In this document: positions 1,219-54,326 of the stretch, in pieces | How positions within the stretch are numbered: the first letter of the stretch is position 1 | Layout of the letters: the number at the start of each line of letters is the position of its first letter | The notes under the pieces: generated by a model | Seen by the model: only the letters and a program-made list of their open reading frames with translations | Database searches by the model: none | Told to the model about the DNA's origin: nothing | Program-made: the position numbers and the translations under genes | Origin: Nemophila menziesii | Lineage: Eukaryota; Streptophyta; Magnoliopsida; Boraginales; Hydrophyllaceae | Direction of reading: 5' to 3' | Assembly (NCBI GenBank): GCA_029959085.1 | Contig: JARWIR010000002.1 | Location: forward strand, 33,195,733-33,259,732 | Length of the DNA: 64,000 bases

Positions 1219-2359
1219 AATACAAACCTCGTCAGGGCGATTATAAGCTACGTTTACACGAATAACTAATTACCCAATTGGCTACGTGGTTAGTTAAACT
1301 CGTCAAGATCAATCATGAATACCACGTGCTTATTATTTAGTATAATAATTAACCCCTCCCCCCCCCCCCCCCTCCCGGATGATCACCACCACTCATAAAT
1401 AGCCTAATTACTAATACCTATTTCTAATTGGCCTAATTAATAATAGTAAATAATTTTGAAATAATAAACAATATGAAATACCTAACTTTGAATTAAATTG
1501 GAACAATCCCAAATTCAAAAGTACTAAATTTATTAAATTAGGACCTATCCCATTATGCGATTCTCAAGTATATAAGGGTTAAGCTCATATTGAAATCAAA
1601 TACTGAAAAGAAATTGATTTGATACATGTCTCCTAAAAACAGAAATAAAAATAACCTAATTAGATGAATGACTTGAGTTATTGGTTGAATAAAAGAACTT
1701 CTCCAGCTTCTACAATTGCCTCTGCTTTGCTTTCTCTCTTTCTCTCTCAGAAAATTGGAAATAATTTGAAGTGTACTGATTTATGTGGTTTAAGAAGCCT
1801 TATATAGAGATTAAAAATGGATTGGGCACCTTTTTAACTTAATTAAATGATTAAGGGCCCAAGACCATTTTAAAATTTCCGCATCTACTATACACACTTT
1901 AGTAAAACAGATGTAACTTTCGCATCGTAAGTCCAAATCACCTAAAACCACTTCTCATATTTCGCTAACTCAAAGGCGCATCTTTTTCATTTGAACCACC
2001 AAGTCTGAATCTGCACCGTTTGAGCTCAGAAAGGGCTAGAAGTGGAGACTTTCCCGTTTCCAGTGCTCCTCCACCTTCACTAAAGTTATGTCTTTAGCTC
2101 CTTTAACACTTCTTTTGATCTTGAACTTTAAACTTCACTTATTCTCTTCATATTAATGCCTCCTAGCATCCATGTACCTAATAACTTCACACTAAACAAG
2201 CAAATTAACGCACAAAAGCTCTAAAAGCACCAAATAATTCTGAAGGAAGAAAGTGCAATATAGAAAAATATGCCTACAAATCAACTCACTTAGTCCAATT
2301 TCTACCTAAAATTATGTCTTCTACGAGCATTTATTTATAAGAAAAAATGGAGACAAACA
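1219..2359 (-). repeat. LTR-B tandem unit 1 (partial)
   Basis: Right-hand 1.1 kb of a family B Athila-like LTR. It aligns by eye along its whole length with 2760-3856 (shared landmarks: the CTCGTCAGGGCGATTATAAGC-type block, the TTATGCGATTCTCAAGTATA block, and a ATAATTAAATGATTAAGG block). It ends GGAGACAAACA and is followed at once by TGGTCGC, the start of the next unit, with no internal domain between. A pyrimidine tract of about 24 bases, nearly all C, at 1353-1376 interrupts the unit. No protein-coding potential is seen. Confidence 0.75.
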
Positions 2360-3856
2360 TGGTCGCTTCTAGAGTGTGATAAAAATCAACACTAAAGAAG
2401 AGAAGCGACTCCCGCAAGTATACGGGTCGTCCAAGTAATGATAGATAGAAACGGAACAATCTTCTCCACAGGGGATTGCTAGATATGACTGATTTGTTTA
2501 AGTGAGAAGTAGAATAATTGCAATACGAAATAAATAAAGATGAATGCTTGTTTTGGTTTTAGATTATGAAACTACTAAACTCAAGAAAGTAAATTAATTA
2601 GAGATTAACAAATGCAAATAAATAAAGAGTAAAAGAGTAGACGCAGATATGAGAACTAAACTTCACTCTTTTCTAGGGATCCACCTATCTTAATATCTAT
2701 AGGGCTTTAGTTTAAGGGTCAAGTTGGTAAATCTATACTAGTTAGGACTCTAACATCTCCTAACTCTCGTCAGAGCAGACTTAGAAGCTATCCTACAGTA
2801 TCACAAACCCCGTTAGGGTGATTATAAGCTACATTAAGATGAATAAGAAATTACCGAATTGTTTATGTGACTGGTCAAGCCCATTAGGATCAATGACCGC
2901 TTCCGGATGATCACTCGTGAATAGTTTAATTAATAATACCTATTTTTAGTTGTCCTAATTAAAAATAGTAAATAAGCTTGAAATAATAAATCATATGAAA
3001 TACCCAACTTAAATTGAATTGAAAGAATCCCAAATTTAAAACTACTATAATTATTAAATTAGGACTTAACCGATTATGCGATTCTCAAGTATATAAGGGT
3101 TGAACTCATATTGAAATTAAATACAAAAAATAGTTTGATTTGATACATGTCTCCTAAAATCAGAAATTAAAAAATACCTAATTAGATGAATGAGTTGAGT
3201 TGTTGGTTAAAGAAAAAAATTTCTCCAGCTTTTGTTCTTGCCACTGCTTTGGTCTCTCTCAGAAGATTAGACATAATATGACGCGCACTGATTTTTGAGG
3301 TTTAATAAGCTTTATATAGAGCTTAAAAACGGATTGAGCCCATATTTGACTTAATTAAATGATTAAGGGCCTAAGTCCATCTTATGATTCCCGCATCTGT
3401 TGTACACACTTTAGTAAAACATGTGTAACTTTCACATCGTAAGTCCAAATCACCTTAAACTACTTCTCAAATTTCGCTGACTCAGATACGCATATTTTAA
3501 TTTGAACCACCAGGTGTGAACTGCAACGTTTGGGCCCAGGAACGGAAGAAGTGACGACTTTCCAAATTCTAGTACTCCTCCACCTTTACTAAAGTGATGT
3601 ATTTTGCTCCTTTAACACTTCCTTTTGATCTTGGACTTTAAAAACCACTTCTTCTCTTCATCTTAATGCCTCCTAGAATCCATGTACCTAATAACTTTAA
3701 ACTAAACAAGCAAATTAACGCACAAAAGATCTGAAAGTAACAATATTATAATTCTGAAGAAAGAAAGTGAAATATATAAAAATATGCATAAAAATCAACT
3801 CACTAAGTCCAATTTCTACTAAGGGAATTTATTTATCACCAAAAGGGAGACAAACT
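2360..3856 (-). repeat. LTR-B tandem unit 2 (complete)
   Basis: Complete 1497-bp unit starting TGGTCGCTTCTAGAGTGTG and ending GGAGACAAACT. Start and body match the free-standing LTR at 61836-63350, which has a gag fragment beside it; this identifies the unit as an Athila-like LTR read on the minus strand. A CTTATATAGAGC block near 3309-3320 gives a TATATAAG box on the minus strand. The unit abuts its neighbours without gag, PBS or polypurine tract. There are no ORFs worth calling. Confidence 0.8.
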
Positions 3857-4325
3857 TGGTCGCTCTTAGAGTGTAATAAAAATCATCACTAAAGAAGAGA
3901 AGTGACTACCGCATGTGACAGGTCGTCCAAGTAATAATAGGTAAAACATGATAATCGTCTCCACAAGTATTGCTAGATATGACTAATTTTAGTTTAAGTG
4001 AGAAGTAGAATTAATTTAAATACAAAATAAATAAAGATTAATGTTTGGTTGAGTATCTGATTATAAAACTATATAACAAAATAAAGTAAATTAACTAGAT
4101 ATTTACAGAATGCTTATAAAATAAAGACTAAAAGAGTGGACGCAAATATGAGATGTATACTTGAGTCTCTCTAGGATACACCTAAGTTCAAATATTTAGT
4201 GCTTTCGTTTAAGGGTCAAACTAGGAATTCTATAATAGATGGGACTCTAACATCTCCTAACTTCCGTTAGGGCAGACTTAGAAGCTATCATACATTATTA
4301 CAAACCTCGTCAGGGCGATCATAGG
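3857..4325 (-). repeat. LTR-B tandem unit 3, left segment
   Basis: First 469 bp of unit 3 (starts TGGTCGCTCTTAGAGTG). It breaks off at GGGCGATCATAGG where Athila element A1 begins. The sequence resumes at 18553 with ATAATCTACGTTCAGACG, matching the ATTATAAGCTACGTTYAGACG order of other units. The A1 insertion therefore split the unit. The flanking 5-mers ATAGG and ATAAT share only ATA, as expected for a decayed 5-bp TSD. Confidence 0.78.
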
Positions 4326-5540
4326 TGGTGGTCCTTTGTGTGTTCTAGAAAAATGCAATTAAGGAAAAGAGAACCAGAACCGCAAGTGTACGGTTGTCCA
4401 AAGTAATATAAGTGATAAAACAGATTCGTTCTCAGGGACGAAATGGTTGACTCTAATGCTTATCAAATAGTAGTTAATTGCACGTGAAAATAAGTAAATG
4501 ATTTTTAGAAGTGTTTGTTTGGTTTTCTAATGCTAAGACAATAAATTGAAATACTAAATTAATGCAAGTAATTAACTAGACGTAAGAAAATAAAGTGTTT
4601 ACGCAAGATGAGAAGGCAGTGCTTGAGAGACGCTAGGATATCACCTAATTATCATTCATTTCATGCATTGTTTAAGGGACAAATTGGTAAATTTGTATTG
4701 CTCGTGATTCGGAATTATCCTTACCCCCATCAGGGTGGACTAAGGAGCTACTCTAAAGTGCTACAAACCCCGTCAGGGTGATTATAGTCCACTCTCAAGT
4801 GATTAAGTCTAATTTACCCAATAGGCCATAGGTTTAATTAAGCTCGTCAGAGTCTAATTTCTAACCTATATTCATTAACTAGTTCTTTACCCAGACCCCC
4901 CATCAAGGTGATCCAATCGCCACTAATTGGAATAGCCTAGATACTAAGTCCTATTATTAATTGATCGGGTCAATAATAATAGATAAAATGCAAATTAAAG
5001 AAAAATACAATTTACCCAATTTGATTTAAATAATAATTATCCCAAATCCAAACATATGAAACGAAATCAACTGGGATTAACCCATTATGCGTTCTCAAGC
5101 ACTTAATGAAATTAGCTCATGCTAATGTGAAATACTAAATTAAAAGAAATAAAAGTATTCATATTGTTTTACAGAAAGAAATAAAAGAAAACCTAATTTT
5201 GGAATTAGATTAGCTGTGATTTGGAGATATAGACCGTCTCCAACTCTGTAGCTTTCTCCTCTTCCTTGCCTTGACTTCTCTCTAATGCTTTCTTTTGTAA
5301 AAAGTGAATTGTGTGAAAAATAGAAGTCAAAACCCTTATTTATACTCCAGAATTCGGACTTGGACCTTAGGCTAAGGTTTAAATGAAATAATAAAGGCCC
5401 AAGTCTATTATCTTAGCCCAAAATCCCGTAACTGCTACACCACCTCCACTGAAACAGCTCTAACCGGCTCGTTTCAACTCGGATTGACCTCATTCCAGTT
5501 GCTAAAGTTCCGTAACTCAATGGGGCACGTTTTCTCTCAA
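4326..5540 (-). repeat. A1 3' LTR, left part
   Basis: Starts TGGTGGTCCTTTGTGTGTTC, identical to the start of the 5' LTR at 16976, and stays collinear with it to about CACGTTTTCTCT, where the chromovirus begins. It continues at 10946 (TAAATCTACTCTTAGGTGGC). About 15 bp present in the intact LTR (18192-18206 region) are missing at the junction. Contains four spaced copies of a CCCCGTCAGGGTGAT-like motif that occurs in all LTR families of this window. Confidence 0.85.
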
Positions 5541-5907
5541 TGAAAGCACCAATGAAATGATTTATAAATAATAATGGTATATATATTAATAATTATTATT
5601 AATTACAGTATTTAAATAAATTATACTGTAATATAATTATTGAATATCTACATTCCCATAATGGTATGGAACAAGAGAATATTATAAGAAGGAAGGAGGG
5701 AAAAGAAGATTCAAGAGATAAGAAGGAAACTTTATTTATTTTTTCACATATATCTTTCTATACTTTCTATTACAATATATAAATACAATTCACCATAACG
5801 GTAATAAACCGTTATGCTATTCTAATTTCAAATATTAATCAATAATCCCTTCCCGCCTAACATAATATTTCCTAAACCTAATCTAAACCTAATCCAAAGT
5901 CATAACA
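5541..5907 (-). repeat. Chromovirus 3' LTR
   Basis: 367 bp, TGAAAGCACC to GTCATAACA on the plus strand, matching 10652-10945. It is about 73 bp longer than the other LTR because of an AT-rich insert near 5568-5640 made of ATTAATAATTATTATT-like repeats. Most of the remaining 290 bp is near-identical between the two copies. Confidence 0.85.
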
Positions 5908-6138
5908 ATTTAGCCGCTAATGAAACGATCTTGATAAACTTTATTTATAAATACTAATAATTACAATAATAATTTGCAAGCAATTTAGAGATCTTGCATT
6001 TATTGAATTACATATATTTACATGATGAGAATAATTGAAATACAAGGAAGATATAAGAGAAGAGATGTAGAAGTCAGGGAAGGAATTTTCTAATTTTTCT
6101 GGATAACCGTTGCCTCCTGCTTCTCTCTTATTATAACT
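5908..6138. other. Chromovirus 3' untranslated stretch
   Basis: About 230 bp between the 3' LTR and the stop codon of the chromodomain ORF. AT-rich, with the 3' polypurine tract expected at its left end. I see no further ORF or repeat in it. Confidence 0.5.
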
Positions 6139-6723
6139 TTAGCCAAGTACATAACCGTTAAATTTCTTAGGAACTATTTTATGACGGTTACTCTTACATT
6201 GTTGAAAGTCTCTATCCCCAGGTTCGGAAGGCATAACATTTCCCCGCCCACTTTCGAGAACCTTGTCCTCAAGGTTCGGATAATTTTTCAGAATGATCGT
6301 TGCATCTTCCCATGTTGCCTCTTCCGTGGATAATCCTTCCCATTGAACTTGTACTTGTTGAACTTCAGAACCTTGACGTTGGATTGTACGTTTGGATAAG
6401 ATAGCCACCGGTTGAACAATTGGGGTAGTTGGGGTAGACAATAGTGGTAACGGAATTGTCTGATGAACAATATTACCAGAGCACTTCTTTAACATTGAAA
6501 CATGAAACACTGGATGTATACGGGCTGTCTGGGGTAGTTCCAATTCATAAGCAACTGAACCAATACATTTAATAACCTTGAAAGGTCCAAAATATCTCGG
6601 ACCAAGCTTGTGGTAGCATTGTAAACGGACAGAAAGTTTCCGATAAGGTTGAAGTTTCACAAATACCCAATCACCAACAGCAAAATGTACGTCACGGCGC
6701 TTCTTATCAGCGTTGTTTTTCAT
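6139..6723 (-). pseudogene. Chromovirus integrase C-terminus with chromodomain
   Basis: Open for 194 codons. The first 80 residues form the end of the integrase, with the GPRYFGPFKV (GPY/F) motif followed by YELELPQTARIHPVFHVSML. A chromodomain-like module then follows (about residues 105-160), with VQVQWEGLSTEEATWED. In chromoviruses this module is thought to steer integration toward modified histones. The segment directly continues the integrase core on its right but in another frame, so the pol polyprotein is broken near 6725. Confidence 0.83.
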
Positions 6724-6729
6724 TCGGTG

Positions 6730-7643
6730 TTATGCTTTTAGCATGTTCTCCTTTAAGGTTTGAAGCAATACATCACGTTGAATTAGATCTTGATTGACAT
6801 TATCATTAGTAGTTGACCCAGAAATATAACGTTCAATAGTAGGAGGGGGTCGACCATACAATGCCTCAAATGGTGTCATTCCAGCGGCCGTGTGAAAAGA
6901 AGTATTATACCAGTATTCCGCCCAAGGTAAAAAATTTGTCCACTTCTCAGGATGATCATGAACAAAACATCGAAGATACATCTCAACATATTTATTTAAT
7001 ACCTCTATTTGGCCATCAGTTTGAGGATGATAGGAGGTGGTCATTGCCAGAGTATTTCCCTGTAGACGAAATAATTCCTTCCAAAAGGAGCTCAAAAATA
7101 GAGGATCACGATCAGAAACAATGGTTCGCGGCATACCATGAAGACGCAAGATCTCCTTTACAAATATATCTGCCACAACCTGACTAGTAAATGTTGTAGG
7201 AAGTGCACAAAAGTGACCATACTTAGTAAGGCGATCCACCACTACGAATATTGATGTCTTTCCTTGCGAACACGGTAGCCCTGTGATAAAATCCATAGAA
7301 ATATCTTCCCAAACCTTATTAGGTATAGGTAATGGTTGAAGAAGTCCTGCTGGTGATGACTGAAGAAATTTCATTTGTTGACAAATAATACAATCTGCCA
7401 CATACAAATTCACATCTTTCCGCATATTTACCCAAAAAAATTAGCTGCCAACCTTTTGTAAGTTCTAAGAGTTCCAGAATGCCCTCCTGTAGGTGTGTTA
7501 TGGAATTTAGTAATTAAAACATGTTTTAAACTCGAATGTTCGGACAACACAAGTCTATTCCGATAATAAAGAAGGCCATCTCGGACATAATAAAATTGCA
7601 TACTCAACGGATCTTTCTCCAATTTCTCGTGCAATTGTATCAA
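6730..7643 (-). pseudogene. Chromovirus integrase (zinc finger and catalytic core)
   Basis: Two adjoining open stretches (7643-7428 and 7425-6730). The first ends in the N-terminal zinc-binding region (KFHNTPTGGHSG); its cysteine pair CIICQQ opens the second. The core shows the DDE residues in MDFITGLP, IVSDRDPLF and SYHPQTDGQIEVLN, followed by WAEYWYNTSFHTAAGMTPFE. The stretches are separated by an in-frame stop at 7428-7430, next to a homopolymer T run on the coding strand. This looks like a one-base length change rather than a substitution. The enzyme would insert element cDNA into chromosomes; this copy cannot make it intact. Confidence 0.85.
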
Positions 7644-7664
7644 GTCCTTTTCTTTTGCATTCTC

Positions 7665-9021
7665 TTAACGTAATTCTTTGACAAAATCGAAATGAGGTGT
7701 TGTGACAGCAAAAAATACATTAAAATCAGTTGGGTATCTTGAAAGAGCATCTGCCACGGTATTCTCCTTTCCAGGACGATAATTAATATCAAAGACGTAT
7801 CCCAATAATTTGGAAAGCCATTGTCGTTGTTCCGGTGTCTGAATCGTTTGATCGTTAAGCTCCTTCAAACTACGTTGATCTGTGCGAATAAAAAAAATTT
7901 CTACCCAAAAGATAATGCCTCCATTTTGAAACTGACTGTGTAATGGCATACATTTCTCGATGATATGCCGAGGACCCCTGCATCCGCGGTGACAATTTTG
8001 CACTGAAAAAAGCAATAGGATGTCCATCTTGGCTGGGTACCGCACCAATTCCAATTCCTGATGCATCGGTCTCCACGACAAATTGTTTTGTGAAATCAGG
8101 TAAGGCTAATATAGGTGTTGATGTAAGCGCGGATTTTAATTGATTGAAAGCCTGGAAAGATATATCTGTCCATTCAAATGAATCTTTTCTCAATAAATCA
8201 GTGAGAGGCGAAGCTATACGAGCATAACTCTTGATAAAAGGTCAATAATAACCTGTTAGACCGAAAAATCCGCGTAATGTTTTCAGATTATGAGGAATAA
8301 GCCAATCCACCACTGCTTGAATTTTTCCAAGATCCATACTTACTCCCTTGCCGCTTACTACATGCCCCAAGTATTCAACTTTGTCTTAACCAAAGACACA
8401 TTTGGATAGTTTTGCAACAAATTTATGAGATGACAAAATTTGTAAAACCAATTCCAAATGCTGTAAATGTTCCGCCATCGAACGACTATACACAAGAATA
8501 TCATCAAAAAATACCAACACAAATTTACACAAGTATGGATTAAAAATTTGATTCATTGCAGCTTGAAATGTTGATGGTGCATTTGTTAGGCCGAAAGGCA
8601 TCACTAAGTATTCATAATGACCTTCATGAGTCCGAAAGGCAGTCTTATGAATATCATGTGGTTGAACTCTTATTTGATGATACCCAGAAATTAAATCCAG
8701 TTTTGAAAAAACCATCGAACCATGTAATTCATCGAGCAATTCATCCACTGTAGAGATCGGAAAACGGTCTTTTACTGTAACTGCATTTAAGAAAAGATAA
8801 TCAGTACAAAAACGCCACGTACCATCTTTCTTTTTCACCAAAATTACGGGAGATGAAAACGGACTAGTACTTGGCCGTATAATTCCTTCTTTAAGCATAT
8901 CCGAAACCAAGCGTTCAATTTCCGTCTTTTGGCAATGAGGGTATCTATACATACGAACATTAACAGGCTCAGCTGAAGGTAATAAATGAATGGAATGATC
9001 AAAATTCCTTTGCGGAGGCAA
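7665..9021 (-). pseudogene. Chromovirus reverse transcriptase and RNase H
   Basis: RT is readable at 9021-8386: [29 protein letters not shown] and the active-site box [10 protein letters not shown] (FFDD in place of the usual YxDD). RNase H follows at 8193-7665: VETDASGIGIGAV at the first catalytic Asp, then a frame change, then IRTDQRSLK and ENTVADALSR. Stops interrupt the RT connection (about 8386 and 8240) and frames shift near 7930 and 8000. These domains copy the element RNA into DNA and remove the RNA template. Confidence 0.86.
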
Positions 9022-9200
9022 ATTATTGGGTTTCTTGAATACATTACTATATTTTCTAGCAGTGGTCCCAAATAAGGATGAATACCATCAGTAATCTTTG
9101 TTCTTTCAACACAAACATGCAATTGATGAAAACATTCCACATCATCAACATCAGACAAACAACGGAAAGAATGAAACTTTATCGGCCGCGGATTTAAATG

Positions 9201-9865
9201 TCATACCCCTTGTAAACAAATGTCATTACCCTTGTGATTAAATGAAAGAGTCAGATCATGAGAATCATGGAGAACTTTTCCCAAAGATGCTAGCCACTGT
9301 ACCCCCAATACTATATCAGCACCATGTAAAGGAAGAACAAATAGATACACACAAAAAATAACACCCTGAATATGTAATTCAACATTTTGATACAACCCTC
9401 ACTAATTAACATACCACCATTGCCAACCATAACACGAAATCGTGATGATGACTCAATTGGAAATCCCAAATGTTTAGCAACACGATTCTGGATAAAAAAT
9501 TTAGTCGATCCACTATCAACAAGAACTTGTAACGACGTACCTGTCACCAAGGCATCCAAACGAATCGTAGTCGGGGATGATGATCCGCCTAGAGCATGAA
9601 ATGATGTATCACTGACAAGTTGGAGTTCTGCTTCATGAAGAGAAGTTTCAGAATCATCGATAATACAATCAGAGTCTACAATATCAGGATCCAAGATGTA
9701 AAGTAGTGGTGGTGTTTTATAACGATGACCGCGGGCCCATTTCTCATCACAATTATAACAAAGTTTAAGATCACAATGATTTTGCATTTCAGCGGCAGTT
9801 AGTTTACGAATAGGAAATCTATGTGTTACAGGTTTGGTTATTAACGGTTCATTAGGTGTCGGCAA
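9201..9865 (-). pseudogene. Chromovirus Gag zinc knuckle and aspartic protease
   Basis: Overlapping frames 9865-9311 and 9395-9201. A zinc-knuckle remnant reads CYNCDEKWARGHRY, in which the last Cys of the usual CCHC set is Tyr. The protease follows with the active-site triplet in VLVDSGST and, after a frame change, the flap-distal segment LPLHGADIVLGVQWL. The protease would cut the Gag-Pol polyprotein in virus-like particles. Upstream it joins gag (10639-10013), with a broken frame at 9870-10010. Confidence 0.78.
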
Positions 9866-10012
9866 TAATGTAGGTTGTTGCCCTGTATCAATAGATTTTC
9901 TATAATCATGTCGAAGTTGAACACGACGAGACTATATAAATTTTGCTTCATGTAATCTAGCCAAGGCAATACACTGTGACATCGATTGAGGACGGAAAGC
10001 CTTCACTTCATT

Positions 10013-10639: not shown

Positions 10640-10651
10640 GGTTCAATTCAA

Positions 10652-16846: not shown

Positions 16847-16951
16847 ACACCAAACCTAAAAACCTGAAAAAGATGAACAAACAAAGCGTAAAAATGAAAA
16901 ATAAAAATGCAACTAACACTAAAGGATAAACACCGGGGTCACATGCTACCG

Positions 16952-40384: not shown

Positions 40385-40404
40385 TTTTTTTATTCGGAGA
40401 TATT

Positions 40405-42600: not shown

Positions 42601-45600
42601 TTATGCTCTCATCCCATTAATCACTATTGGTTTGTATGAGTAGTTCCCTAAGCCACCTATTCTATAAAAGTACTTTGCCCATAATAGAATAAACACTCCA
42701 TAGTCAAGCTACCTTGTATTTATTTAGGTGAGTCTATGTGAAATAAGTGGTATGACTCTGATGCATTTTGATTATCTACATTCGAAACGTTCTTCACTAG
42801 AAAATCTCTATACCTTTTCGCAGCAGCTTTAGTTTTTTTTTCCAGTGGATCCTTTGCCTTTTTCCACATATGGAGTTGTAGTAATTGAATGTCTTAAAGA
42901 GCATGTCATACACCATTAAGCTCCAGTTACTGCCACCTTCGGCTTCTACAAATACAGGTAACAGTGTATAATCATATTCTTGGTTGTTTCTTCTGAAAGC
43001 ATCTTTTACGAAGAAATTGATTTCATCTTCCATTTCGCTTACAATATAGTTCTGTTTAAAATTGCAATAACAAAGAGAACCGGTTTAATTTACTATAAGA
43101 AAATTATTGTTTTTAAAGCGTGAATGTGTTACCTACAAAGCAGCCGGCAACGTGGAAGTTGATTTTGTGTTGCCCACCACTCTTCCCATTACCATACTCC
43201 TCATCACACATTACAAGCATATCATCTATCATATGTGATTATAAATTACTCGTAACACACATGAAAGAAATATAACCAAACTCAGTTAAGTTACTGAGTA
43301 TGTCAACCATACTCAGTACTTTTACTGAGTATGATTGACATACTCAGTAAAAGTCTGAGTATGATTGTTCAGACTTAGTAGACTTATCGATTAAGTTAGT
43401 CTTTTTCATATTTCTTACCTTAACTGCAATTGCCCCCTTATGTTCAATGTTCAATACTTCAATGATTGGCACCATAACCGGTTCCTAGACCCAAACATTC
43501 TCCTTTAGCTTTCCGTTTGTCATCCTACTCAAGAAAGTGTGATCGGCTTTTCTGCAATATTTATGTGGAAGAATTTCATTTGACATGCTGGTTCTTCAGT
43601 AACCACTTTTTTTAGCCTTTGTTTGCTTCTCCTCTTCATTTATCTAATCTTGTGTTGCATTCAACAGATCAAATCATGGTTGCGATGGCTTGATTTCTGC
43701 TAGGCATCCTGTTTCAACTGATTTAGTTTTAGCAACTTTAGCAATTCAACTGGCTTTTTGTAAACTAGCCGTCCTTTTTGGTCTTCTAAGAGGTGGATCA
43801 TCTACAAAATATGAAGAATTTGCTTTCTCCGTCACAAATCCCTCTTGAAGAATCGTCCCTGGAGTGTACTTACTAACAATTCCTACTAGCTTCTTTTTTG
43901 CTAGGTTCATCCAATTACACTCTGTAGGTCACACTCCTTCTCCCGAGTTAGAACCTCATTTCCTTCTTCATCTTTTCTCCCAGCAGTTTCTTCACCTTCT
44001 ATATCCCCCATAGCCACCAACTTGGCTATCTATCTAAGATTGATGATCTCATCTTGGAGTGTTTTGTTCTCATCTTTAAGTTTTTTGTTTTCATTCTTAA
44101 GTGTTTTGTTCTCATCCTGTATTAGGTCAGTTCCAGCATGAAGTGCATCATGTCCTTCATTCATTCCCTTTATATAATCTTCTAGTGATCTAATCCTTGA
44201 CTCCAGATTTGTTTTATCTTTCGAAATTTCTTTCATTTGTTCTTCTTTTCATAAAAATATTAAATTAGATTTTTCAAAACCTTCCTCTACTACTTTTAGC
44301 CTTCTACTCAGTTGGTTTTTTTCCTTTGCAGCTCTACATTTTTTGCAATCAATACTTTCCCTACCATTCTTTCTTCTTCCATCCTCTTGATATCCTCAGC
44401 GTGTTTTAGGTTCTCTGCCGTTAATTCATCTATCTCGGCGACCAGCCGGTTGTTTTTGTGTGTTGCTTCGTCTATCCTAGAACGCAGTCTTTTTACTACA
44501 GCATTTGTCGAACCACCCCAACCTCGTTCGCTGCGTTATATCTGAATCTCAAAAACTCTGCATCCTCATTCACAATTTTTTTTGTTTCGTTCACCCCTCA
44601 TATTTTGAACTTGTGTTTGCCGACGACACCTCCTTTTCACTAGAAATCCTTAAGCTTCTCCTGATTTTGAAGATTTTACGGTCGTATATCTTCAAACCGT
44701 TTGAAATATTCACCTCCTCTCGGTGGACCGTCTTCCATCGATTCATCTATGTTCATCTCTTCAGCTTCACTAGAGAAGTCCATTCATGGTTCTTCTCTCA
44801 TCTCAGTATTTGCGTCCATTTCTTGATCTCTTACCAACCCTTCATCATCTCTAACAACCTCTTTCCCCTCTCTTCTATCATTTATCTAATTGTTAACCAT
44901 CACATCATACTTATCATCCATATTTTAACCTTCTGAATTTCTTCTTTTTCTACTTCCTCCCCATCATTACCATCATCATTACCTTAATTATTCACCCGTT
45001 CTAACAAATTGGAATGTTGTATGTCATCGTCATTGCCATCTTGTAGATTTTCTTGTATCAAAACCCATCGATTTTCTTCATCAGTTGGTTCTGGTTCCCT
45101 TATAGACACCTACAATCAGTACCCAAACAAAATTTATTAATAAAATCCTTAATATAATTCTCTCAAAATACTCAATAAATAATTTAATCGTAAACTATCA
45201 TAACCATTCTCGTTTTCACACGATGAGGGTTTTCGCTCTTGTAGCCAACGTAATAATCCCATTCCTGAATCTCAGACTTCCATTTGGGTCCTGGCTTGTT
45301 CCAACTGATACATGCTCATGGTACCAAGGCTGAAAAATAATAAAGGTTAAAACCATACTCAGATTATCAATTTTATTAATTATTACTCAACTTATGTATT
45401 ACTTACCAATATTATGAACAAATTAGCGACGACTGACTTGATGTCCTCGTATGTAGAGATCGAATCGGTTATATCATTTACGATAGCTGAGGCCCAGTCA
45501 TATTGCTTCATTTTCTCTAGGTCTTCACATATACTAAACTATTTTCTAACAATATAATTTCCGTCAGCAAACAACAGTTTTGTTACGGTGTACATGCGCA

Positions 45601-46086
45601 GGAGTTTTGCTACATCCTCCTGAGGTTGAAATATTGCTTCCCCCTCCAGAATTTCTAGTTTACAGTTTTGTACTGTTGTTGAAGTCAATTCTTTTTTTGT
45701 TCCTCCTCCAAAGTTCCTTAGGTACCACTCACTTTCAGCATATTTTTCCTCCTTTGTGATCAATTGGAAATTGTTATTGCCACATTTAATTCCCATCAAA
45801 ATCTTCACTTGTTTTGGGGTGATATGAAGTTCTTTTCCAGCAATCATAAACCTATCCTTCTCCCTATCGTAGCATTCAATTCTCTTTTTCATTAACTTGT
45901 CAAATTTCTTGATTGTTGTGTAAGTTCTTATTTTAGCGTATATAAACCCATCCACAATCTATGGAAAGGTGTTTTTGTGCATCGACCTAATAATTTTGGT
46001 AAAAATTCTCCCATCTTCAACATTTTAAACAACCCTACCATGGTTGATGGGTATTGGACTTCGCTACCCCTTTTTTCCTTTGCCAT
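42601..46086 (-). pseudogene. Ulp1-like (SUMO protease family) passenger gene of the MULE
   Basis: Start MAKEKRGSEVQYPSTMVGLF at 46086; a shift near 45965 leads to 45955-45539 (MKKRIECYDREKD, AGKELHITPKQVKILMGIK), the N-terminal region typical of plant transposon Ulp1 proteins. Further exons follow: 45530-45410 ending at a GTAAGT donor, and 45330-45200 after a TTTTTCAG acceptor. Then come a coiled coil (44236-44030) and the peptidase C48-like domain at 43033-42601. In that domain the catalytic positions read SNW for HW (42926-42928), YYNSI for YDSx (42875-42877) and DYGVFILLWAKYF for DCGxF (42700-42702). Stops and shifts show decay. Ulp1 enzymes remove SUMO; this product could not cleave. Confidence 0.72.
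44030..44236 (-). other. Coiled-coil segment of the Ulp1-like gene
   Basis: 68 open codons with heptad-like, near-tandem repeats of ENKTLKNENKKLKDENKTLQ. Such coiled coils lie between the N-terminal domain and the C48-like domain in plant MULE Ulp proteins. It is part of the gene above, not a separate one. Confidence 0.6.
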
Positions 46087-46549
46087 TTAAAAAACATAAA
46101 ATTTGTATGAGTTCTTACTATAATTATGATGTATACCTTACTGAGCATACCTAACAAGTTACACACAAGATATTGATTATACCTAACAACTTACACACAA
46201 GTTACTGATTTCACCTTTCTAAGTATATCTAACAACTTACATGCAACTTACTGAGTATATCAGACAAGTACTGATTACACTTAAAAAGTATACCTAACAA
46301 CTTACTGAGCATACTTAACAAGTACCTAGCAGCTACTGTGAATTCAACATTTACTGATTACACCTTACTGAGTATACCTAAGAACTTACACACATGTTAC
46401 TGATTTGACCTTTATGAGTATATCTAACAACTTACATCCAACTTACTGAGTATATCAAACAAGTACTGATTACACTTAAAAGGTATACATAACAACTTAT
46501 TGAGCATACTTAACAAGTACCCAACAGCTACTAAGCATTCATAATTTAC
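46087..46549. repeat. Direct repeat array rich in ACTGAGTATAC motif (MULE)
   Basis: 46130-46520 consists of two imperfect direct copies of about 190-200 bp, with the unit CTTACTGAGTATACCTAA(C/G)AACTTACACACA...GTACTGATTACACTTAAAA. Each copy itself contains several ACTGAG(T/C)ATA blocks. It lies between the Ulp1-like gene start and LINE-2. Its continuation after LINE-2 is at 53181 (TGATTACACCTTACTGAGTATA). Confidence 0.75.
46535..46549. repeat. LINE-2 target-site duplication (left copy)
   Basis: GCATTCATAATTTAC, matched by GCATTCATAAATTAC at 53167-53181 (one mismatch in 15). Confidence 0.83.
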
Positions 46550-46925
46550 TTTTTTTTATCGGCTAATCAAATTTTATTAGAATAAGGTTAACTATCCATT
46601 TTCCTTTACACTTAATTATACCCGGGGAGGATATAAAATTTGACTAAGCTATTACATACGATAACTCCTAAATAAAGAACTATCTAGTACTAACCCAAAA
46701 CCATTGGGCTAACATTAAAAAACATAACAACCAAGTAAAACATTTGTGGGCTAACTAACACTACTCTTCACAATTAATTTTCAAGCCCAATTCACGCGCC
46801 TTCTTTGTCTTAAAAATTCTGCAATCTAATTTGATTGAGACAAGAGAGAGAATACAATTCTTGAGATGCTCTTCGTTCTTTTTAGCATCACCATGATTTT
46901 TCATATTTCTTTCTCCCCAAATGCA

Positions 46926-47012
<87 letters not shown>
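46926..47012. repeat. (TA)n microsatellite inside LINE-2
   Basis: About 38 consecutive TA dinucleotides with one interruption (ACATATA near 47000). It falls within the 3' coding region of LINE-2 ORF2, next to the conserved IYCIWGERN segment (LINE-1: IYCVWNERN). It expanded after the insertion, or in a source copy. Confidence 0.95.
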
Positions 47013-47013
<1 letters not shown>

Positions 47014-48594
47014 GTAGTCAAGCATGCACTATATATAAGCATTTCTTCTTTACTAACCTTCAAGCTTATCAAGAATTCAACTAAACCCATGATACTGTGT
47101 TGATTGTATTGGACTTCACATTTACTGAATAAATTTTAAGTATTCTCGAAGTAAATGAGCAATTGATTAGTAGATGATCTAAATCTTAATTGCTCCTCTA
47201 CCGAACACACAAAGGGTATCAATATTACATCCCCAACTCATCAATCTTTCTTTTGTAGGCAGTCGATTCTGAACAGCTTACCATGAAATAAATGAGCATC
47301 TAGGAATACACAATTTAGCACACACCATTTCACTCCACTTTACTGTTTGTTTCTCACCTGTGGTTTTCTTTAAAGTTCTTCTAAATGAGAAATTTCCCTT
47401 TATATTCTCACTCTATATAATTTCATCCTCTTCTGAAGTTAACTTTTTAGTATAAATTAGAGGTACTATCTTACCTACACATGGTGGAAGCCTTCATCTG
47501 TTTTTCCCAAAACATGAGGCAACAGTTCTATTGCAACTTCGGTTATATTTATCTACTTCCAATTTGAGAATATCAGAGAAATTCTTGCCTTGAATCCACT
47601 TGTTCCACAAATAATAAGTGCTCATTTCATTATTAACTTTATGTAAGATGAATTGATAAGCCAGAGTCCTAATCTTCATAATTTTTTTCCACACCCAGGT
47701 ATAACTCTGTTTTGAATCAAGACTCCACACACAAGCTCCTTTAATGATATTCTTATTTTCTCATTGACTCCATAAGTTATTGGACTGAACATACCTTCTC
47801 CAAAAACTATATAATAGGAAAACTTTATTAATATCCTCCAAATTTGGTAAACTAAGTCTACCATTATCCTTACTAGAGCAGATTTGACCCCAAGATATTT
47901 TAGCTCCTTGTGCACCTGCAGTATCACCTTTCCACATGAAGCTAGACATTTTCTGATTAAGTTTGTAGATTACATGTTTAGGGAGCATAAACACTCTACA
48001 CTAGAAATATTTTTTGCTAATTAAAACTGTCTTTATGAGCTCAAGTCTACCTGCATAAGAAAGTAGTTTAGAGCACCATTGATTGATGCACTGGAAAATC
48101 TTCTCAACTAATTTATTTCCATCTTGAATACTCATCTTTTTAGAGTTTAATGGAACACCTAAATATCTCACTGGCATGTTACCAACTTTGATATTGAGTA
48201 TACTCGAAATTTCTTGCTTAGTTTCTTCATGAGTACCCCCAAAATATATATTGCTCTTCTGATAATTTATATTTAGCCCAGAAATTCTAGAAAATAATAT
48301 AAGAGCCTCTTTGACAAAATTTGCATATTTGCAATCAAATTTCATAAAGATGAGTACGTCATCTGCAAAAGCTAGATTATTAAGCTTCAGGGCATCACAT
48401 TTTGGATGAAAATTGAAGTCAATATTGTTAGCTACATTATGAAATAATCATGTGTATACTTCCATACTTATTGCAAATAGATACGGAGAGAGAGGATCTC
48501 CTTGCCTGAGTCCTCTCTTTCCTTTAAAGAATCCACAAGGCTGCCCATTAACTATGATTGAGTAAGAAGTTGAACATATACACATCTTATTCAT

Positions 48595-48795
48595 AATGTA
48601 CCATCGTTTTGGATGGCTCTTATTCTTGGCTCTTCGGATCCATGTGTTAAGATTTAAAGATATAGTGAGTTGCACAAATGGTTTAGTTTCAATCTTGGTT
48701 AATTATTCTTCTCCATTTGTATATGAATTATGAAAATAAAGAGAGAAAATGCGAAGTAATTAAATATTATGTTTAATGACTGGTACAGGCAACTT
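48595..48795. other. Unidentified insert of about 200 bp in LINE-2 reverse transcriptase
   Basis: Compared with LINE-1, where FIEWIRICICSPSYS is continuous, LINE-2 has about 200 extra bases between the FINGL codons (48.82 kb) and the MCICSTSYS codons (48.58 kb). The flanks show TTATTCATAATGTACC and TTATTCATGTTCCC, a possible imperfect TSD. No terminal repeats or coding match recognised. Confidence 0.5.
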
Positions 48796-49531
48796 TGATT
48801 ATTCATGTTCCCATTGGGTTAATCCATTAATAAATTTATTAGGAAATCCAAAGGCATTGGGTGTATTTAATAGAAAACTCCAATTAACATTGTCATAAGC
48901 CTTTTGTAAATCAAGATTAATGGTACATCTAGGTGAAATTGTCTTCTTATCATATCCAAGAACTATGTCATGTGCAACAAGAATTGTCACTAATAAATCT
49001 ATTTTTAACATAGGCAGCTTGGTTCATAGATATAATAGAATTTAAAACCTTCCTCAGTCTATTAGAAATAGCTCTTGATATAGTTTTATAGGTGGTATTA
49101 ACACAAGATATTGGCCTAAACTTCTTAACATTTGAAGCATTCTTCACTTTAGGTATAAGTACTATATTTGTGGCGTGGACTTGATTGAGAAGCTCACCTG
49201 ATTTCAAGCATTAATTGATGGAATTACAAAAGTCTTCACCTATAATGTTCCATGATGATTTGTAAAAACATGCGTTAAATCCATCAGGAGCAGGGCATTT
49301 GTTCTCCTCAATTGAAAATAACGCTTCCTTAATTTCTTCATTTGTGAAAGGTACAATTAGAGCCTTACGCCGATCCTCAATTATAGAGTTATGAATTAGC
49401 TTTAATAACTAAGCTAGAACATATCTCTTGGTTTGGTTCTTCAGCCCCAAGTAAATTTGTATGGAATTCCACAAACTCCTACTTAATAAGTTCAGGCTCA
49501 ATGATAAATTGCCCATTATCTTTAATGAGAG

Positions 49532-50515
49532 TTTTTTATCATCAAATCAAATTTTATTAAAATAAACTCAACTTCCATTGTCCTTACAACTCTAACCAAT
49601 TTTAAGTATTATACCCAAGCATGGACATAAAGCCTTAAAAACAAGTTATCAACCTTACTACATTACTACTACTCGACCCAAAAATAAAATAGATAAAACT
49701 GGCCCATTACAAGAAATATTACATTAACGACAAATTAAGATTATCAACTATCTCTCTTGCTACTTTATCTTTGAATTTCGACCTCTGCAATTTCATCCTT
49801 GCTATTCCGATAATTTTGTTGCAAATTTGGTCTTCAGTCAAACCATTTCCACCATGCTCCAAATCATTTCTCACCCACCATACTTGATATATATATGAGC
49901 TACACACGGTACTTCTAGCCATTACTTGCTCTTTACACTTATTCACTGTAACTTCATCACTTAATTCTTTAAAGTCTTTTGGTATCTTGTCAATTTTACA
50001 AATTGTGAGAATTTTTTTAAGAATTCTGCCAGTGAAAGAACACCCAAAAAACAAGTGAATGTAGTCTTCAATGACAACTTTAAAGAAAATACACAAAGGA
50101 TTACTTACATTTCCCCATACTAACATCCTTTTCTTGGTGCTTAGTTTATCTTGTACTGCAAGCCACGCAATAAACAAACATCTTGGAGTGTTCTTCTTTT
50201 CCCAAATCATCTTGTACCAAAACAAATCCTCTTCATTATCATCTGCAGTGATTTGCGAGAGAGTCTTCATAAAAGAGAACTTATTTTTAACACTCTCTTT
50301 CCATATTTTAACATCACTTCTAGTATTAAGCATATACTCATTGACTTTAGGAAGAATTCTGCCAATTTTAGGAGGCAACCTCCATTTGTTTCTTCCATAG
50401 AAATCACTCACAATTTTGTTATTATTTATATCATCCTTACTTAATTCAAAATTCAGAATTTCTTGAACACTTGAGCCTTCTAACCATCGTCCCACATCAT
50501 ATATGTGTCATTTCC
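49532..50515 (-). mobile_element. LINE-3: 5'-truncated LINE nested in LINE-2
   Basis: A T-rich tail followed by ATCAAATCAAATTTTATTAAA at 49539, the same 3' end as LINE-1, then the terminal 980 bp of a LINE. The open stretch 50495-49719 is the zinc-binding RT domain (TPRCLFIAWLAVQDKLSTKK, CSFTGRILKK) and C-terminus (GGNGLTEDQICNKIIGIARM). LINE-2 ORF2 breaks at its left (SLIKDNGQF) and resumes at its right (KSYEEALLIQNKIL). Truncation at the 5' end is normal for target-primed reverse transcription. The TSD is not clear. Confidence 0.82.
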
Positions 50516-51618
50516 TTAATCATTTTATAATAATATAATAAACTCTGATCATTATCATAATCTAATATAGCTCTTGACTTCTACCTAAGGATTTTATTTT
50601 GAATTAACAATGCTTCTTCATATGACTTTACTAAATCTTTATCTATTAATAAGCTTAGTGTATCCTCCCATAATTTTTAGTTGAATAATGTCAAGCTGAG
50701 ATTTGATGTCTTTCATTTGAGCTGAGTTCCTTCTGAAATATTTATTATTAAACTTCTTTAGCTCATTCTTTACTTTCTTTTGCCTCTTGCAGAATTGAAA
50801 CATAGGGTTACCCTCAACTTTGATGCTCCAGGCTTTTTTAATTACCTCTATATAATCCTTATTTTGACTCCATACACTGAAGAATCTGAAGGAGCTTGGG
50901 TTGTTTGACTTGAGCAGGACTACAACCATTTTAATGCATAATGATCTGAGGATAATGGAAGCATAATTATCACATTTGATTGAGTTTTATCTATCCACTT
51001 GTTGTTGATAAACACCCTATAAATCTTGCTAGCTCTGAGTTTACCATCTCTGTTTTTATTGGTCAATGTATAATATTACTTCCATAACGATGCTCATAAA
51101 GATTTGCCCTGTTGATACAATATGCAAAATCAATAGAACTTTTAGTAAGAACATCACCATTAAGTATGCCCTTAATCTTTAGAATTTCATTCAAGTCTCC
51201 CAATATGCACATGCATTGATTACTATAATCTTCACTCCAGTTAACTATATCATTCCATAGCACAAGCCTGTCATCAACATCATTACTTGCATATATAAAA
51301 AAAAGCAATTAAATTAAAATTATTCTTCAGGTCATTAGCATCAATCAGAATAGCCTGAGAAGTGCTTATAATAAACTTTACGTGTACATGGTTGTTATCC
51401 CACATAATCCATATCCTCCCCAAGTCATCATTATTATAATTGTGAATTAACTCAAACTGAGGAAAGTGCTCAGCCTTTATTTTAGAAACTTTATCGAATT
51501 TAACTTTTTTTCCAAAAGACCGATTAGTTTAAATATTATTAAAAGGCATAAAATATCTAACATCTAACCTCCTAAGAAGCTTATTAAATCCCCTTAAGTT
51601 CCAAGCAGCTATATTCAT
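50516..51618 (-). pseudogene. LINE-2 ORF2, N-terminal part (endonuclease)
   Basis: Begins MNIAAWNLRGFNKLLRRLDVR at 51618 (AWNLRGF is the first APE motif). Endonuclease residues CILGDLNEILKIKG at about 51190 are preceded by LVLWNDIVNWSEDYSNQCM. The linker 50929-50516 aligns with LINE-1 (RRNSAQMKDIKSQLDIIQL). Stops near 51540-51430 and shifts elsewhere. Confidence 0.8.
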
Positions 51619-51641
51619 ATATTGGGACGTCTGGTGATCTC

Positions 51642-52876
51642 TTAACCACCTGCATCCTTAATAAACTGTACTACATCTTGATCAATAGAGCTTGAGGCTT
51701 GATTCTCAAGCTTGCTAAAGGAATTATTAGTATAAATTAAGTGAGAAGAGGATTGAGTACTTTCCTTAGCCTTCTGAGCCACTATATGCCATGTATCTAC
51801 AGGACTTTTACCCTTATCCTCTACTTTTGAAGAACTCTCACCTATTTCTTTCTCCTTGGCAATCTTAGGAAGCCATATCTTCTGCATCTTCTGACACTTT
51901 CCTTCTACATGACCAAATTGGTTGCACTTAGAACATATGATCGGTTTCCTGTCTTAATCAACCTTGACTTCTTGTAACTTTTCAAACCCCATATCCACAT
52001 AAATAATATCTGGTAATTCTTCATTTGTGTTGATTTCAACAAATACTCTAGCATATCCCAGACTAGATTTGGACTCAGTAACTGAATCCATTTGTATAGG
52101 AACTCCAATACCACTTGCAATATAGCTTACCCTTGTTTTAGTCCACAAAGACATTGGTATATTCTGTAACTTGACCCAAATTGGGATTTTACTTGTATCA
52201 ATTTTCTCGAATTGCATTCCTTCTTTCCACAGCCTTAATAATAAAGGTTTACCGCTAATGTGCCACAATTTTTCAAGCGCACGACTAGAAAACTGAGTAT
52301 TCTAAAATTTAAATATGAAAAAGCCTTTGTTATAAGATTTTACCTTAACCTTACACAATCTGCTCCACTGAAATCAAACAGAATTAAAGACCGCATATCT
52401 AAGAATTGTCCAATTAGACATTTTTCTCACTGTTTAGCACCCTCTTCTAGCACTTGAGAAGGAGGAGTAATGATTCCCTTACCTTCTCTGCGAGTCGGTT
52501 CATGATAATCAAGCTGAAGAGTCTGTTTAGCACAGCCACAGCCATCGAACAGAGTTGACCACGGTTGTGGTTTACTATCGGCTTTCGCTTTCGGGATCTC
52601 CATTTCACAAGTATATTGTAGATCTGCACTTTTAGTTTATGTTTTTTCATTTTCCCGACTTTCTTAATCATCACTGCTATTATCCTTCTCCGATTTGTAA
52701 GCTTGAGCTGGAGTACAAGGAAATTCTTCAGAAGACTCTGGAGATAAAATCATTTTAGTGATATCTTTGAACTTTGGTTTAGGTTTTTGGTTTGATTGAT
52801 GGTTGATTTGTTGAACACGATTCGTTTGTTGAACATTGTTATGTTGAGAAACTTTGGTAATAACTGTTTTGGCCAT
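51642..52876 (-). pseudogene. LINE-2 ORF1 (DUF4283, zinc knuckle)
   Basis: Starts MAKTVITKVSQHNNVQQTNR at 52876, with a Gln/Asn-rich N-terminus. The DUF4283-like middle lies at 52268-51954 (HISGKPLLLRLWKEGMQFE; GVPIQMDSVTESKSSLGYAR). The zinc knuckle CSKCNQFGHVEGKC at about 51930-51890 is intact in composition. A frame change near 52450 and a stop near 51957 break it. The C-terminal tail (51887-51642) ends QFIKDAGG. Confidence 0.82.
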
Positions 52877-53181
52877 AATGAGATCTGAAAAACAAAAAAG
52901 AAGATGGGAAATGGTGAGCGGTGAAGTGGGGTGAAGATGAATGAATGATATATAGAAATCAAGGATGAGAAAGAAAATAGACTTGATGCAAGATCCCAGA
53001 AATTTATGAGATTAACACCAAATCTGAAAAGAAAAAAGCTAAAAAGGTGGTAAAAGTGTGTAAAGAGCAAAAAGAAAAAGGAAAAAAGGTGGAATAATTT
53101 TAGTAGTGGTTAAATGTGTAGAGAGGATTTTTTTGGAAGGTTGACTCTCATTGACCTAACTTTGTTGCATTCATAAATTAC

Positions 53182-53848
53182 TGATTACACCTTACTGAGT
53201 ATAAATAGTAACCATGTTCCAAAATAATCAACAATAATAAGTACGCAACAATCATGAGTATATACAGACATGCATAACAACTAGGCGGTTTTATTGAGTA
53301 CAACCGATATAATGGCCTACTCTAATCACAATTTTCATGTGTGCTTCGGTAATACTCAATAAAATCATATAAAAAAGCTCTAAAAATCAATACGTCGTGA
53401 TTATACCTTTTTGTTAGTATTTGAGAGTAGTTGAAGATACTCAGTATGTCTCTGTTGATTTTCCGGCGTTCCCTTTAGCGGACGACGATGCTCAATGTAT
53501 TTCTGGAGCTTTTTTCCGCCGGCCTCAATATATAGTCTTGAGTAATCAGTATGTCGCTGCTAAGTTATCAGTATGTTGTGCTGAGTTGAACCAAAGATGG
53601 ACTATTTCGTATGCTAGAGTTTTTGGAGGAGAGAGAGTGTTTTAAGAGCAGGATATAGAATACAATATTTGGAGAGCGGGATAATGAAAAGTGAACCAAG
53701 AGAGAGAATTTTGTTTCTTTTGTCTTTTTTGAATAGTAGGGGTAAAGATGACAATGGGCATCTTAGAGGCCTCTTTGGAGAAAAGAAGATTATAATGTTA
53801 CTTTTGTGGCACTAAGATGGTCTCCAAGACCCTATAGATAATTCACCC
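53182..53848. other. MULE right end and terminal inverted repeat
   Basis: Continues the MULE array (CTTACTGAGTATA) after LINE-2. An open plus-strand stretch at 53421-53645 contains further TACTCAGTATGTC and AATCAGTATGTCGC motif copies and has no recognised domain. The last 38 bases are the right TIR, ending ATAATTCACCC against the TSD. Confidence 0.65.
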
Positions 53849-53857
53849 TGTACACAC
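53849..53857. repeat. MULE target-site duplication (right copy)
   Basis: TGTACACAC, identical to 33424-33432. Joining 33432 to 53858 restores a normal LTR-B sequence (TGTTGTACACACTTTAGTAAAA, as in unit 2). Confidence 0.93.
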
Positions 53858-54326
53858 TTTAGTAAAACAGGTGTAACTTTCGCATCGTAAGTCCAAATCA
53901 CTTGAAACCACTTCTCAAATTTTTCTAACTCAGAGGCGCATCTTTTTCATCTGAACCACCAGGTTTGAATCTGCACAGTTTGGGCTCAGTAAGGGTTAGA
54001 AGTGACGACTTTACAGTTCTAATGCTCCTCCACCTCCTCTAAAGTGATGTCTTTTGCTCCTTCAACACTTTCTTTTGGTCTTGGACTTTAAACTTCACTT
54101 CTTCCATTCATATTAAGGCCTCCTAGAAACCATGTACCTAAGGACTTCACACTAAACAACCAAATCAATGCACAAAGCTCTAAAAGTAACAATATTATAA
54201 TTATGAAGGAAGAAAGTGCAATATAGCAAAATATGCGTAAATATCAACTAACTAAGTCAAATTTCTACCAAAAATGATGTCTCCTAAGGGCATTTATTTA
54301 TCACAAAAAGGGAGACATAAGCACCC
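53858..54326 (-). repeat. LTR-B tandem unit 4, right segment (array end)
   Basis: TTTAGTAAAACAGGTGTAAC onward matches unit 2 at 3409-3856 closely. It ends GGGAGACAT, after which the sequence (AAGCACCCTAGCC) no longer matches either a neighbouring unit or an internal region. This is the right limit of the array. Confidence 0.75.

What the first reader, a model, noticed from the sequence alone, without database searches (positions are those of the whole stretch)
1219..54326. Head-to-tail array of LTR-only units sharing one recombinant junction
Four family B LTR units follow each other with no internal domain. The junctions at 2350-2366, 3850-3863 and 19633-19650 all read GGGA(G/T)ACAAAC(T/A)|TGGTCGC. 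That joins a clipped LTR end (GGAGACAtca) to the AAACT spacer that normally lies between the PBS and the LTR (compare GCGCCAAAAACT|TGGTCGC at 61824). The same internal deletion at every junction argues for one founding LTR-LTR fusion followed by unequal exchange, i.e. a satellite being born from an LTR, rather than repeated independent insertions.
Basis: partly seen in the sequence, partly recalled or inferred. Interest (0 to 1): 0.75.

Follow-up and report, generated by a model that had tools for sequence, protein, structure and literature searches.

The report
Retrotransposon with four tandem 5' LTRs
A plant jumping gene sits in its chromosome with four copies of its front-end repeat in a row instead of one, joined by the same tiny scar, which looks like the ends of its DNA copy having been glued together around the time of insertion; it is an old fossil and not a newborn satellite, but a younger array of the same kind elsewhere in the genome did go on to multiply.

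Summary
Four family B LTRs of about 1.5 kb follow each other head to tail, and 3 of 3 junctions have the same breakpoints. The host assembly was searchable (1.52 Gb) and changes the reading. Unit 1 continues left of the window and abuts an intact PBS, then gag, PR, RT, RH, INT and env-like matches, then a PPT-side flank and a 3' LTR. So the array is the multiplied 5' LTR of ONE Athila-like element. The four units and its 3' LTR form one star-like clade (99.7/100) and are about equally old (ratio 0.91, 95% 0.78-1.05). No recent exchange is visible, and only 3 of 41 scored matches span the junction, all in the window. So this is not a satellite being born here. The junction keeps 4-5 of the 6 LTR-PBS spacer bases, as expected if unprocessed cDNA ends were joined. 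A second, independent case at C110:69.45-69.47 Mb has seven LTRs, six identical junctions and one ATATG target-site duplication round the whole element; there the inner LTRs did amplify recently. The mechanism is inferred.

The parts
1224..2355 (-). Unit 1, U3-side part of the PBS-adjacent 5' LTR (other part off-window at L010:883-1328; element C lies between)
2348..2366 (.). Junction 1: GGAGACA|AACA|TGGTCGC
2360..3852 (-). Unit 2, LTR lacking its terminal 3 bases (TCA)
3844..3863 (.). Junction 2: GGGAGACA|AACT|TGGTCGC
3857..4325 (-). Unit 3, first piece (ends in ATAGG, left flank of A1)
18558..19639 (-). Unit 3, second piece (right flank ATAAT of A1 at 18553-18557)
19631..19650 (.). Junction 3: GGGATACA|AACT|TGGTCGC
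19644..20700 (-). Unit 4, first piece
33400..33432 (-). Unit 4, middle piece between A2 and the MULE-like insertion (includes left TSD TGTACACAC 33424-33432)
53858..54325 (-). Unit 4, last piece, ending GGGAGACATAA (TCA in other copies): taken as the outer 5' end of the element
1..1218 (-). LTR part of young element C inserted in unit 1; TSD AATAC at 1219-1223 and L010:1324-1328
4326..18552 (-). Athila-like element A1 nested in unit 3; LTR-LTR K2P 0.038
20701..33394 (-). Athila-like element A2 nested in unit 4; TSD CAAGT; LTR-LTR K2P 0.038
33433..53848 (.). MULE-like insertion in unit 4, 9-bp TSD, SWIM domain ORF, LINE-like reverse transcriptase fragments inside
61836..63357 (-). Separate, more distant family B LTR with PBS and gag fragment on its left; comparison only, not part of the array

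Best explanation
The array is the 5' end of a single Athila-like Ty3/gypsy element on the minus strand, with the order LTR-LTR-LTR-LTR-PBS-gag-PR-RT-RH-INT-env-like-PPT-LTR (shown). The junction was made when the U5 end of a linear cDNA that integrase had not yet trimmed was joined to the U3 end of a cDNA molecule. That U5 end still carried the LTR-PBS spacer. Two spacer bases and three LTR bases were lost, with one base shared (sequence shown, joining inferred). A concatemer or circle of such joined ends lost its extra internal domains by LTR-LTR recombination, and the multi-LTR element was present at or soon after insertion (relative age shown, route inferred). Four copies arose from the one junction by early recombination or circle copying (inferred). 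No exchange has left a visible trace since, and the array is now broken up by C, A1, A2 and a MULE-like element.
For: PBS abuts unit 1, and gag to env-like matches and a PPT-flanked 3' LTR follow on the same strand. Units plus 3' LTR form one clade at 99.7/100, with inner branches of 0.002-0.007 against tips of 0.08-0.105. The age ratio units:3' LTR is 0.91 (0.78-1.05), 500 column bootstraps. 3 of 3 junctions have the same breakpoints and keep the spacer. The junction is private among scored matches: 3 of 41 span it, and the other 38 cover one side, 36 starting at query position 156-163 and 2 ending at 156. The second array has the same layout: PBS-adjacent, 6 of 6 junctions = LTR + spacer + TGG of the PBS + TCT of the PPT + LTR, one TSD ATATG/ATATG, and PBS-adjacent and 3' LTR differing at 12 of 1570 positions. 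Its outer six units all differ from both of these LTRs at 44 columns, 44 of 44 between columns 27 and 246, which a plain duplication of the PBS-adjacent LTR would not give. At C79:4.999 Mb an A-like 3' LTR is followed, in sense direction, by the same spacer plus TG and CT and then a PBS-abutting LTR of a clearly diverged kind. NHEJ LTR-LTR junctions with small indels are reported in carrot eccDNA (PMC9324142, passages read).
Against: No joined cDNA molecule was seen; the mechanism is read from scars. In the window element the outer part of the 3' LTR is lost at L012:9027, so its TSD cannot be tested and a multi-LTR 3' end cannot be excluded. The age test allows the array to be up to about 22% younger than the insertion. 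The steps that remove extra internal domains are inferred. In the second array the junction can also be read as a deletion between PBS and PPT at a GG repeat. The C79 scar could also come from a known kind of tandem element (internal-LTR-PBS-internal) that later lost sequence up to the next LTR; and its second LTR was recognised by its ends (80-84% alike) and forced alignment only (56%). The U5-type difference of the second array is not clear in the window array: unit 1 has 19 private differences in columns 80-260 against 5, 8 and 15 for the others.
Confidence: 0.55

Rival explanations
1. Post-integration duplication: microhomology-mediated repair or unequal sister exchange duplicated the 5' LTR in the chromosome and later exchange raised the number to four.
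For: The junction has only a 1-base overlap, as end-joining repair often gives; unequal exchange clearly acts in the second array, where V3 and V4 differ at 2 of 1562 positions; the age test does not exclude an array somewhat younger than the insertion.
Against: Both breakpoints lie within 3 bases of the two cDNA ends, and again within 3 bases of them in the second array; the window array is about as old as the insertion; in the second array the outer units differ from the PBS-adjacent LTR at 44 columns in the first 250; the C79 scar keeps the spacer between LTRs of different kinds.
Confidence: 0.22
2. Made inside reverse transcription: the repeat unit equals plus-strand strong-stop DNA (PPT tail-U3-R-U5-spacer-PBS start). 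Its 3' end re-primes at the PPT or LTR start by microhomology and copies the LTR again before the normal transfer to the PBS, so LTRs pile up at the 5' end only.
For: Unit, location on the PBS side, constant junctions, similar age to the insertion, and T/GG overlaps at the junctions all fit.
Against: It does not by itself explain the different first 250 bases of the outer units in the second array unless two RNAs are involved; nothing here tests it directly.
Confidence: 0.17
3. Newborn satellite: ongoing unequal exchange spreads and homogenises the family B LTR unit.
For: Head-to-tail arrangement with a shared junction.
Against: Star-like with 14-18% of positions differing, longest identical run between any two of the four units 46 bases, no other copy of the junction among scored matches, broken by four insertions.
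Confidence: 0.03
4. Independent insertions of several elements side by side, later reduced to solo LTRs; or insertion of a copy into the 6-base spacer.
For: A solo LTR in the spacer with TSD AAACT would give GGGAGACATCA|AAACT|TGG, only 4 bases away from what is seen.
Against: All three junctions lack the same bases and no TSD is seen round single units.
Confidence: 0.02

Closest known systems
Tandem LTR-retrotransposons in rice and other plants (PMC11899658; abstract, Background, one Results section and Discussion read)
   Same: One insertion with one TSD and extra LTRs, more often gypsy elements; authors leave open recombination versus retrotransposition origin.
   Different: There LTRs alternate with internal domains; here LTRs follow each other directly with a 4-base (second array: 12-base) scar.
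Template-switching complexes of Triticeae (PMC1950507; whole text read)
   Same: Complex thought to be made before integration, flanked by one TSD, outer LTRs from one reverse transcription.
   Different: Three LTRs with two complete internal domains between them.
Cassandra/TRIM tandem arrays (PMC7215508; 12 of 27 found passages read)
   Same: Many LTRs head to tail in plants.
   Different: The internal domain is the spacer between LTRs; miniature non-autonomous element.
2-LTR (LTR-LTR) junctions of retrotransposon eccDNA (PMC9324142; passages read)
   Same: U5 end joined to U3 end with small indels, attributed to NHEJ.
   Different: Those are extrachromosomal; here such a scar lies fixed in the chromosome and is repeated.

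Membership tests
LTR retrotransposon, Athila-like Ty3/gypsy (lineage name recalled) | LTRs, PBS, gag-PR-RT-RH-INT order, PPT, on one strand | tested here: met
   tblastn of A2 proteins on L010/L011, all minus strand: gag-PR pieces 34-61%, RT 69%, RH 67%, INT 74-81%, env-like 41-47% identity; PBS next to unit 1 and PPT-side flank at the 3' LTR
LTR retrotransposon, Athila-like Ty3/gypsy (lineage name recalled) | Extra ORF between INT and 3' LTR; tRNA-Asp PBS | tested here: inconclusive
   Match to the A2 ORF present; PF20167 hit of that A2 ORF is below Pfam's cut-off (21.5 vs 45 bits); tRNA identity recalled
Single insertion event | One 5-bp TSD round the whole structure | tested here: inconclusive
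   Window element: outer part of the 3' LTR lost at L012:9027. Second array: ATATG/ATATG, met
Tandem LTR-RT sharing internal LTRs | Internal domain between successive LTRs | tested here: not met
   No internal sequence between units 1-4 once the nested insertions are set aside
Satellite DNA | Homogenised repeats in long arrays or many places | tested here: not met
   Units 82-86% alike, star-like, junction found only here among 41 scored matches
2-LTR (cDNA end) junction | U5 end and U3 end joined, with bases of the unprocessed cDNA ends kept or small indels | tested here: met
   Spacer kept, 3+2 bases lost; second array spacer+TGG/TCT kept
2-LTR (cDNA end) junction | Seen on extrachromosomal molecules | not testable with these tools
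   needs eccDNA or particle cDNA

The most novel reading that the evidence does not exclude
In this genome, Athila-like elements have more than once entered chromosomes as multi-LTR molecules made by joining unprocessed cDNA ends, sometimes of two different templates or families. The multiplied 5' LTR that results is a seed from which LTR-only satellites can later grow by unequal exchange: an old seed that stayed at four copies (the window) and a young one whose inner copies have just multiplied (C110:69.45 Mb).
Probability: 0.38. Interest if true: 0.75.

Novelty: new variant of a known kind. Interest (0 to 1): 0.58.

Why it matters
How LTR-derived tandem repeats start is an open question; the plant survey read here leaves recombination and retrotransposition origins undecided (PMC11899658, Discussion). 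Here the scar at the junctions, the similar age of array and insertion, and a TSD round a second array point to birth at the cDNA stage, with unequal exchange as a separate, optional second step. The scar (LTR, spacer, start of the PBS, PPT tail, LTR) is a short signature that can be searched for in any assembly.

Tried and rejected
Searching for the junction in public collections led nowhere: 0 matches in viral contigs and one in genome contigs, in a Rickettsiales MAG contig whose printed neighbourhood shows no LTR. The bare 14-mer is a poor probe of the host genome: 31 matches against 0 for the control, 3 of them in the window. Of the other 28, the 8 with loci were read and 0 of 8 were LTR junctions; the other 20 were not read. 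The pattern GGGAGACA-N0-30-TGGTCGCTC gave 3 matches: one is window junction 2, and the two at C351 are not LTR-LTR junctions on inspection. A PBS-retaining B pattern gave 0. I first thought that the right LTR (61836) might be the partner of the array; distance and tree reject this. The missing outer part of the 3' LTR (unit positions 1-844) was sought in L012, L013 and the 80 kb left of them; in the right orientation only one 35-base match came up. A U5-type difference in the window array, like that of the second array, was tested and is inconclusive. The protein search listed mostly plant names among the named hits, a few labelled as bacteria (Salmonella, Snodgrassella), and many without a name; it did not name the host.

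Rows dropped: for the tree, 24 of 27 fetched B loci gave an extract of suitable length (L021, L028 and L034 did not). L024 and L039 were then left out as composite, so 22 loci plus 6 sequences were used. These loci are the best matches to a junction-2 query, not a random sample. In one search the bases in front of the LTR could be printed for 19 of 27 loci: 11 PBS-like, 8 other sequence, 0 an LTR end. One search scored only 40 of 3784 first-look candidates, so diverged copies of the junction could be missed.
Full report
What is there. The window lies in a 1.517-Gb assembly, G000 C110:33195733-33259732. That it is a plant is inferred: most of the named relatives of its reverse transcriptase are plant proteins. 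Self-comparison and alignment give four family B LTR units (U1-U4) that follow each other head to tail, with junctions at 2348-2366, 3844-3863 and 19631-19650. Later insertions break the units up: C in U1 (TSD AATAC/AATAC), A1 in U3 (ATAGG/ATAAT, imperfect), A2 in U4 (CAAGT/CAAGT) and a MULE-like element in U4 (9-bp TSD TGTACACAC/TGTACACAC, SWIM-domain ORF, weak terminal inverted repeats). LTR-LTR K2P is 0.038 for A1 and for A2, and C has 1 difference in the 1218 bases compared.

The element the units belong to. The sequence left of the window shows the other part of U1 (L010:883-1328). It begins right after CCCGGCAGCGGCGCCA|AAAACT, an intact PBS with its 6-base spacer. Left of that, on the minus strand, come matches to gag (L010:535-7 and on into L011), protease, RT (L011:7929-6886), RNase H, integrase (6264-5176) and an env-like ORF (2988-2297). 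Then comes PPT-side sequence and an LTR whose U3 end is intact (L011:272-768 with L012:9018-9238, split by another insertion with TTAATTAAA on both sides). Its outer part is missing from about L012:9027 outward, where a pol fragment of another element on the opposite strand begins. So the array is the 5' LTR end of one element, and the TSD of this element cannot be read.

Age. In columns where the 3' LTR has bases, the units differ from each other by K2P 0.164-0.186 and from the 3' LTR by 0.168-0.225. The ratio of means is 0.91 (95% 0.78-1.05, 500 bootstraps). In a tree with 22 other B LTRs and R, U1-U4 and the 3' LTR form a clade with 99.7/100 support, and inner branches are 0.002-0.007. The longest identical run between two of the four units is 46 bases. 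So the copies separated at, or not long after, the time of insertion and show no recent exchange. With a recalled plant LTR rate of 1.3e-8 per site and year this would be about 7 million years; the rate is not from a call.

Junction. Read on the minus strand, each junction is LTR end GCGACCA + AGTT (one has TGTT) + TGTCTCC (one has TGTATCC). Intact B LTRs start TGAT(G/A)TCTCC, and the spacer before the PBS is AGTTTT. In an unintegrated linear cDNA the spacer is part of the U5 end (established retroviral and retrotransposon biology, recalled). The junction is therefore readable as two cDNA ends joined with the loss of 2 and 3 bases and a 1-base overlap. If both breakpoints were free within 1.5 kb, both would fall within 3 bases of these ends with a chance of about 2 in 100,000 (simple arithmetic, (7/1500) squared).

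Genome-wide. A 320-bp query across junction 2 gave 41 matches; 3 span the junction, and all 3 are in the window. The other 38 cover one side and stop at the junction (40 of 3784 candidates scored). Of 19 other B loci whose upstream bases could be printed (of 27), 11 follow PBS-like sequence, 8 other sequence and 0 an LTR end.

A second array. For family A the pattern LTR end-N0-30-LTR start gave 23 exact matches (control 0), 6 of them in one place, C110:69451146-69459025. There seven LTRs (V0-V6, about 77% identical to A1 and A2 where compared) lie head to tail. V0 abuts a PBS, 6 of 6 junctions are identical (minus strand: CCACCA + AGTTTT + TGG + TCT + TGATGTC), and the outer end is followed by ATATG. 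The 3' LTR (T) of the same element is preceded by ATATG: one TSD round everything. The internal part is only about 4.1 kb, and only its end pieces and one short stretch match the internal DNA of A2, so this element looks incomplete or non-autonomous. T and V0 differ at 12 of 1570 positions; V1-V6 differ from T or V0 at 50-65. At 44 columns all of V1-V6 differ from T and V0, and 44 of 44 lie in columns 27-246. Private substitutions number 5 in T, 6 in V0, 9 in V6 (which also has two private indels), but 3, 0, 1, 1 and 1 in V1-V5. V6 thus looks as old as the insertion and V1-V5 look like recent copies: a founding pair at insertion, then recent growth by unequal exchange.

A third scar. At C79:4.999 Mb an A-like LTR (90% identical to V3) that has PPT and internal sequence on its U3 side, hence a 3' LTR, is followed in sense direction by spacer, TG and CT, and then by an LTR of a clearly diverged kind that abuts its own PBS. 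A deletion inside one simple element would not give this; joining of two cDNA ends would. A tandem element with a shared LTR followed by a deletion could also give it.

Reading. I take end joining of unprocessed cDNA as the most likely origin (0.55 for the whole statement), post-integration duplication as the main rival (0.22), and re-priming of plus-strand strong-stop DNA as a second rival (0.17). Shown: anatomy, junctions, relative age, uniqueness among the matches scored, TSD of the second array. Inferred: the joining itself, loss of extra internal domains, the way from one junction to three.

Literature. The tandem LTR elements in the three papers read alternate LTRs and internal domains (PMC11899658, PMC1950507, PMC7215508; parts read as listed under Closest known systems). 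LTR-LTR junctions with small indels are described on carrot eccDNA (PMC9324142, passages). In ten searches of the library I saw no listing of a chromosomal LTR-only array with the spacer kept at its junctions; four papers were opened, the other listed ones were not, so this is weak evidence of novelty.

Noticed in passing
L057, L058, L059, L060 (G000 C110:69446600-69467599): Young seven-LTR 5' array inside one ATATG TSD; V0 and the 3' LTR have a different first 250 bases than V1-V6; internal part only about 4.1 kb.
   Followed up: yes
L061 (G000 C79:4997700-5001699): Two LTRs of different kinds joined end to end; the 3' LTR keeps spacer and two PBS bases.
   Followed up: partly
G000 C46:6162371, C89:2464507, C121:21236412, C312:4635193, C1:65442894: Recurring family A LTR-LTR junction with only AGACCC or AGACCCC (PPT tail) between the LTR ends at five loci; shared descent or preferred insertion site not tested.
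   Followed up: no
G000 C110:51037964, C270:2128289, C322:2340324: LTR end joined directly, or after four bases, to the PBS region of the next LTR: looks like elements that lost the internal domain but keep PBS bases; seen as pattern matches only.
   Followed up: no
window 5649-10945: Element with ~260-bp direct repeats (94% alike) and gag-pol-like ORFs nested in the left LTR of A1.
   Followed up: no
window 33433-53848: 20-kb MULE-like insertion with 9-bp TSD, LINE-like fragments and several short tandem repeats around ACTGAGTATG-like motifs.
   Followed up: partly
window 1-1218 and L010:1329-2858: Very young element C: LTRs differ at 1 of 1218 compared positions, perfect 5-bp TSD.
   Followed up: partly
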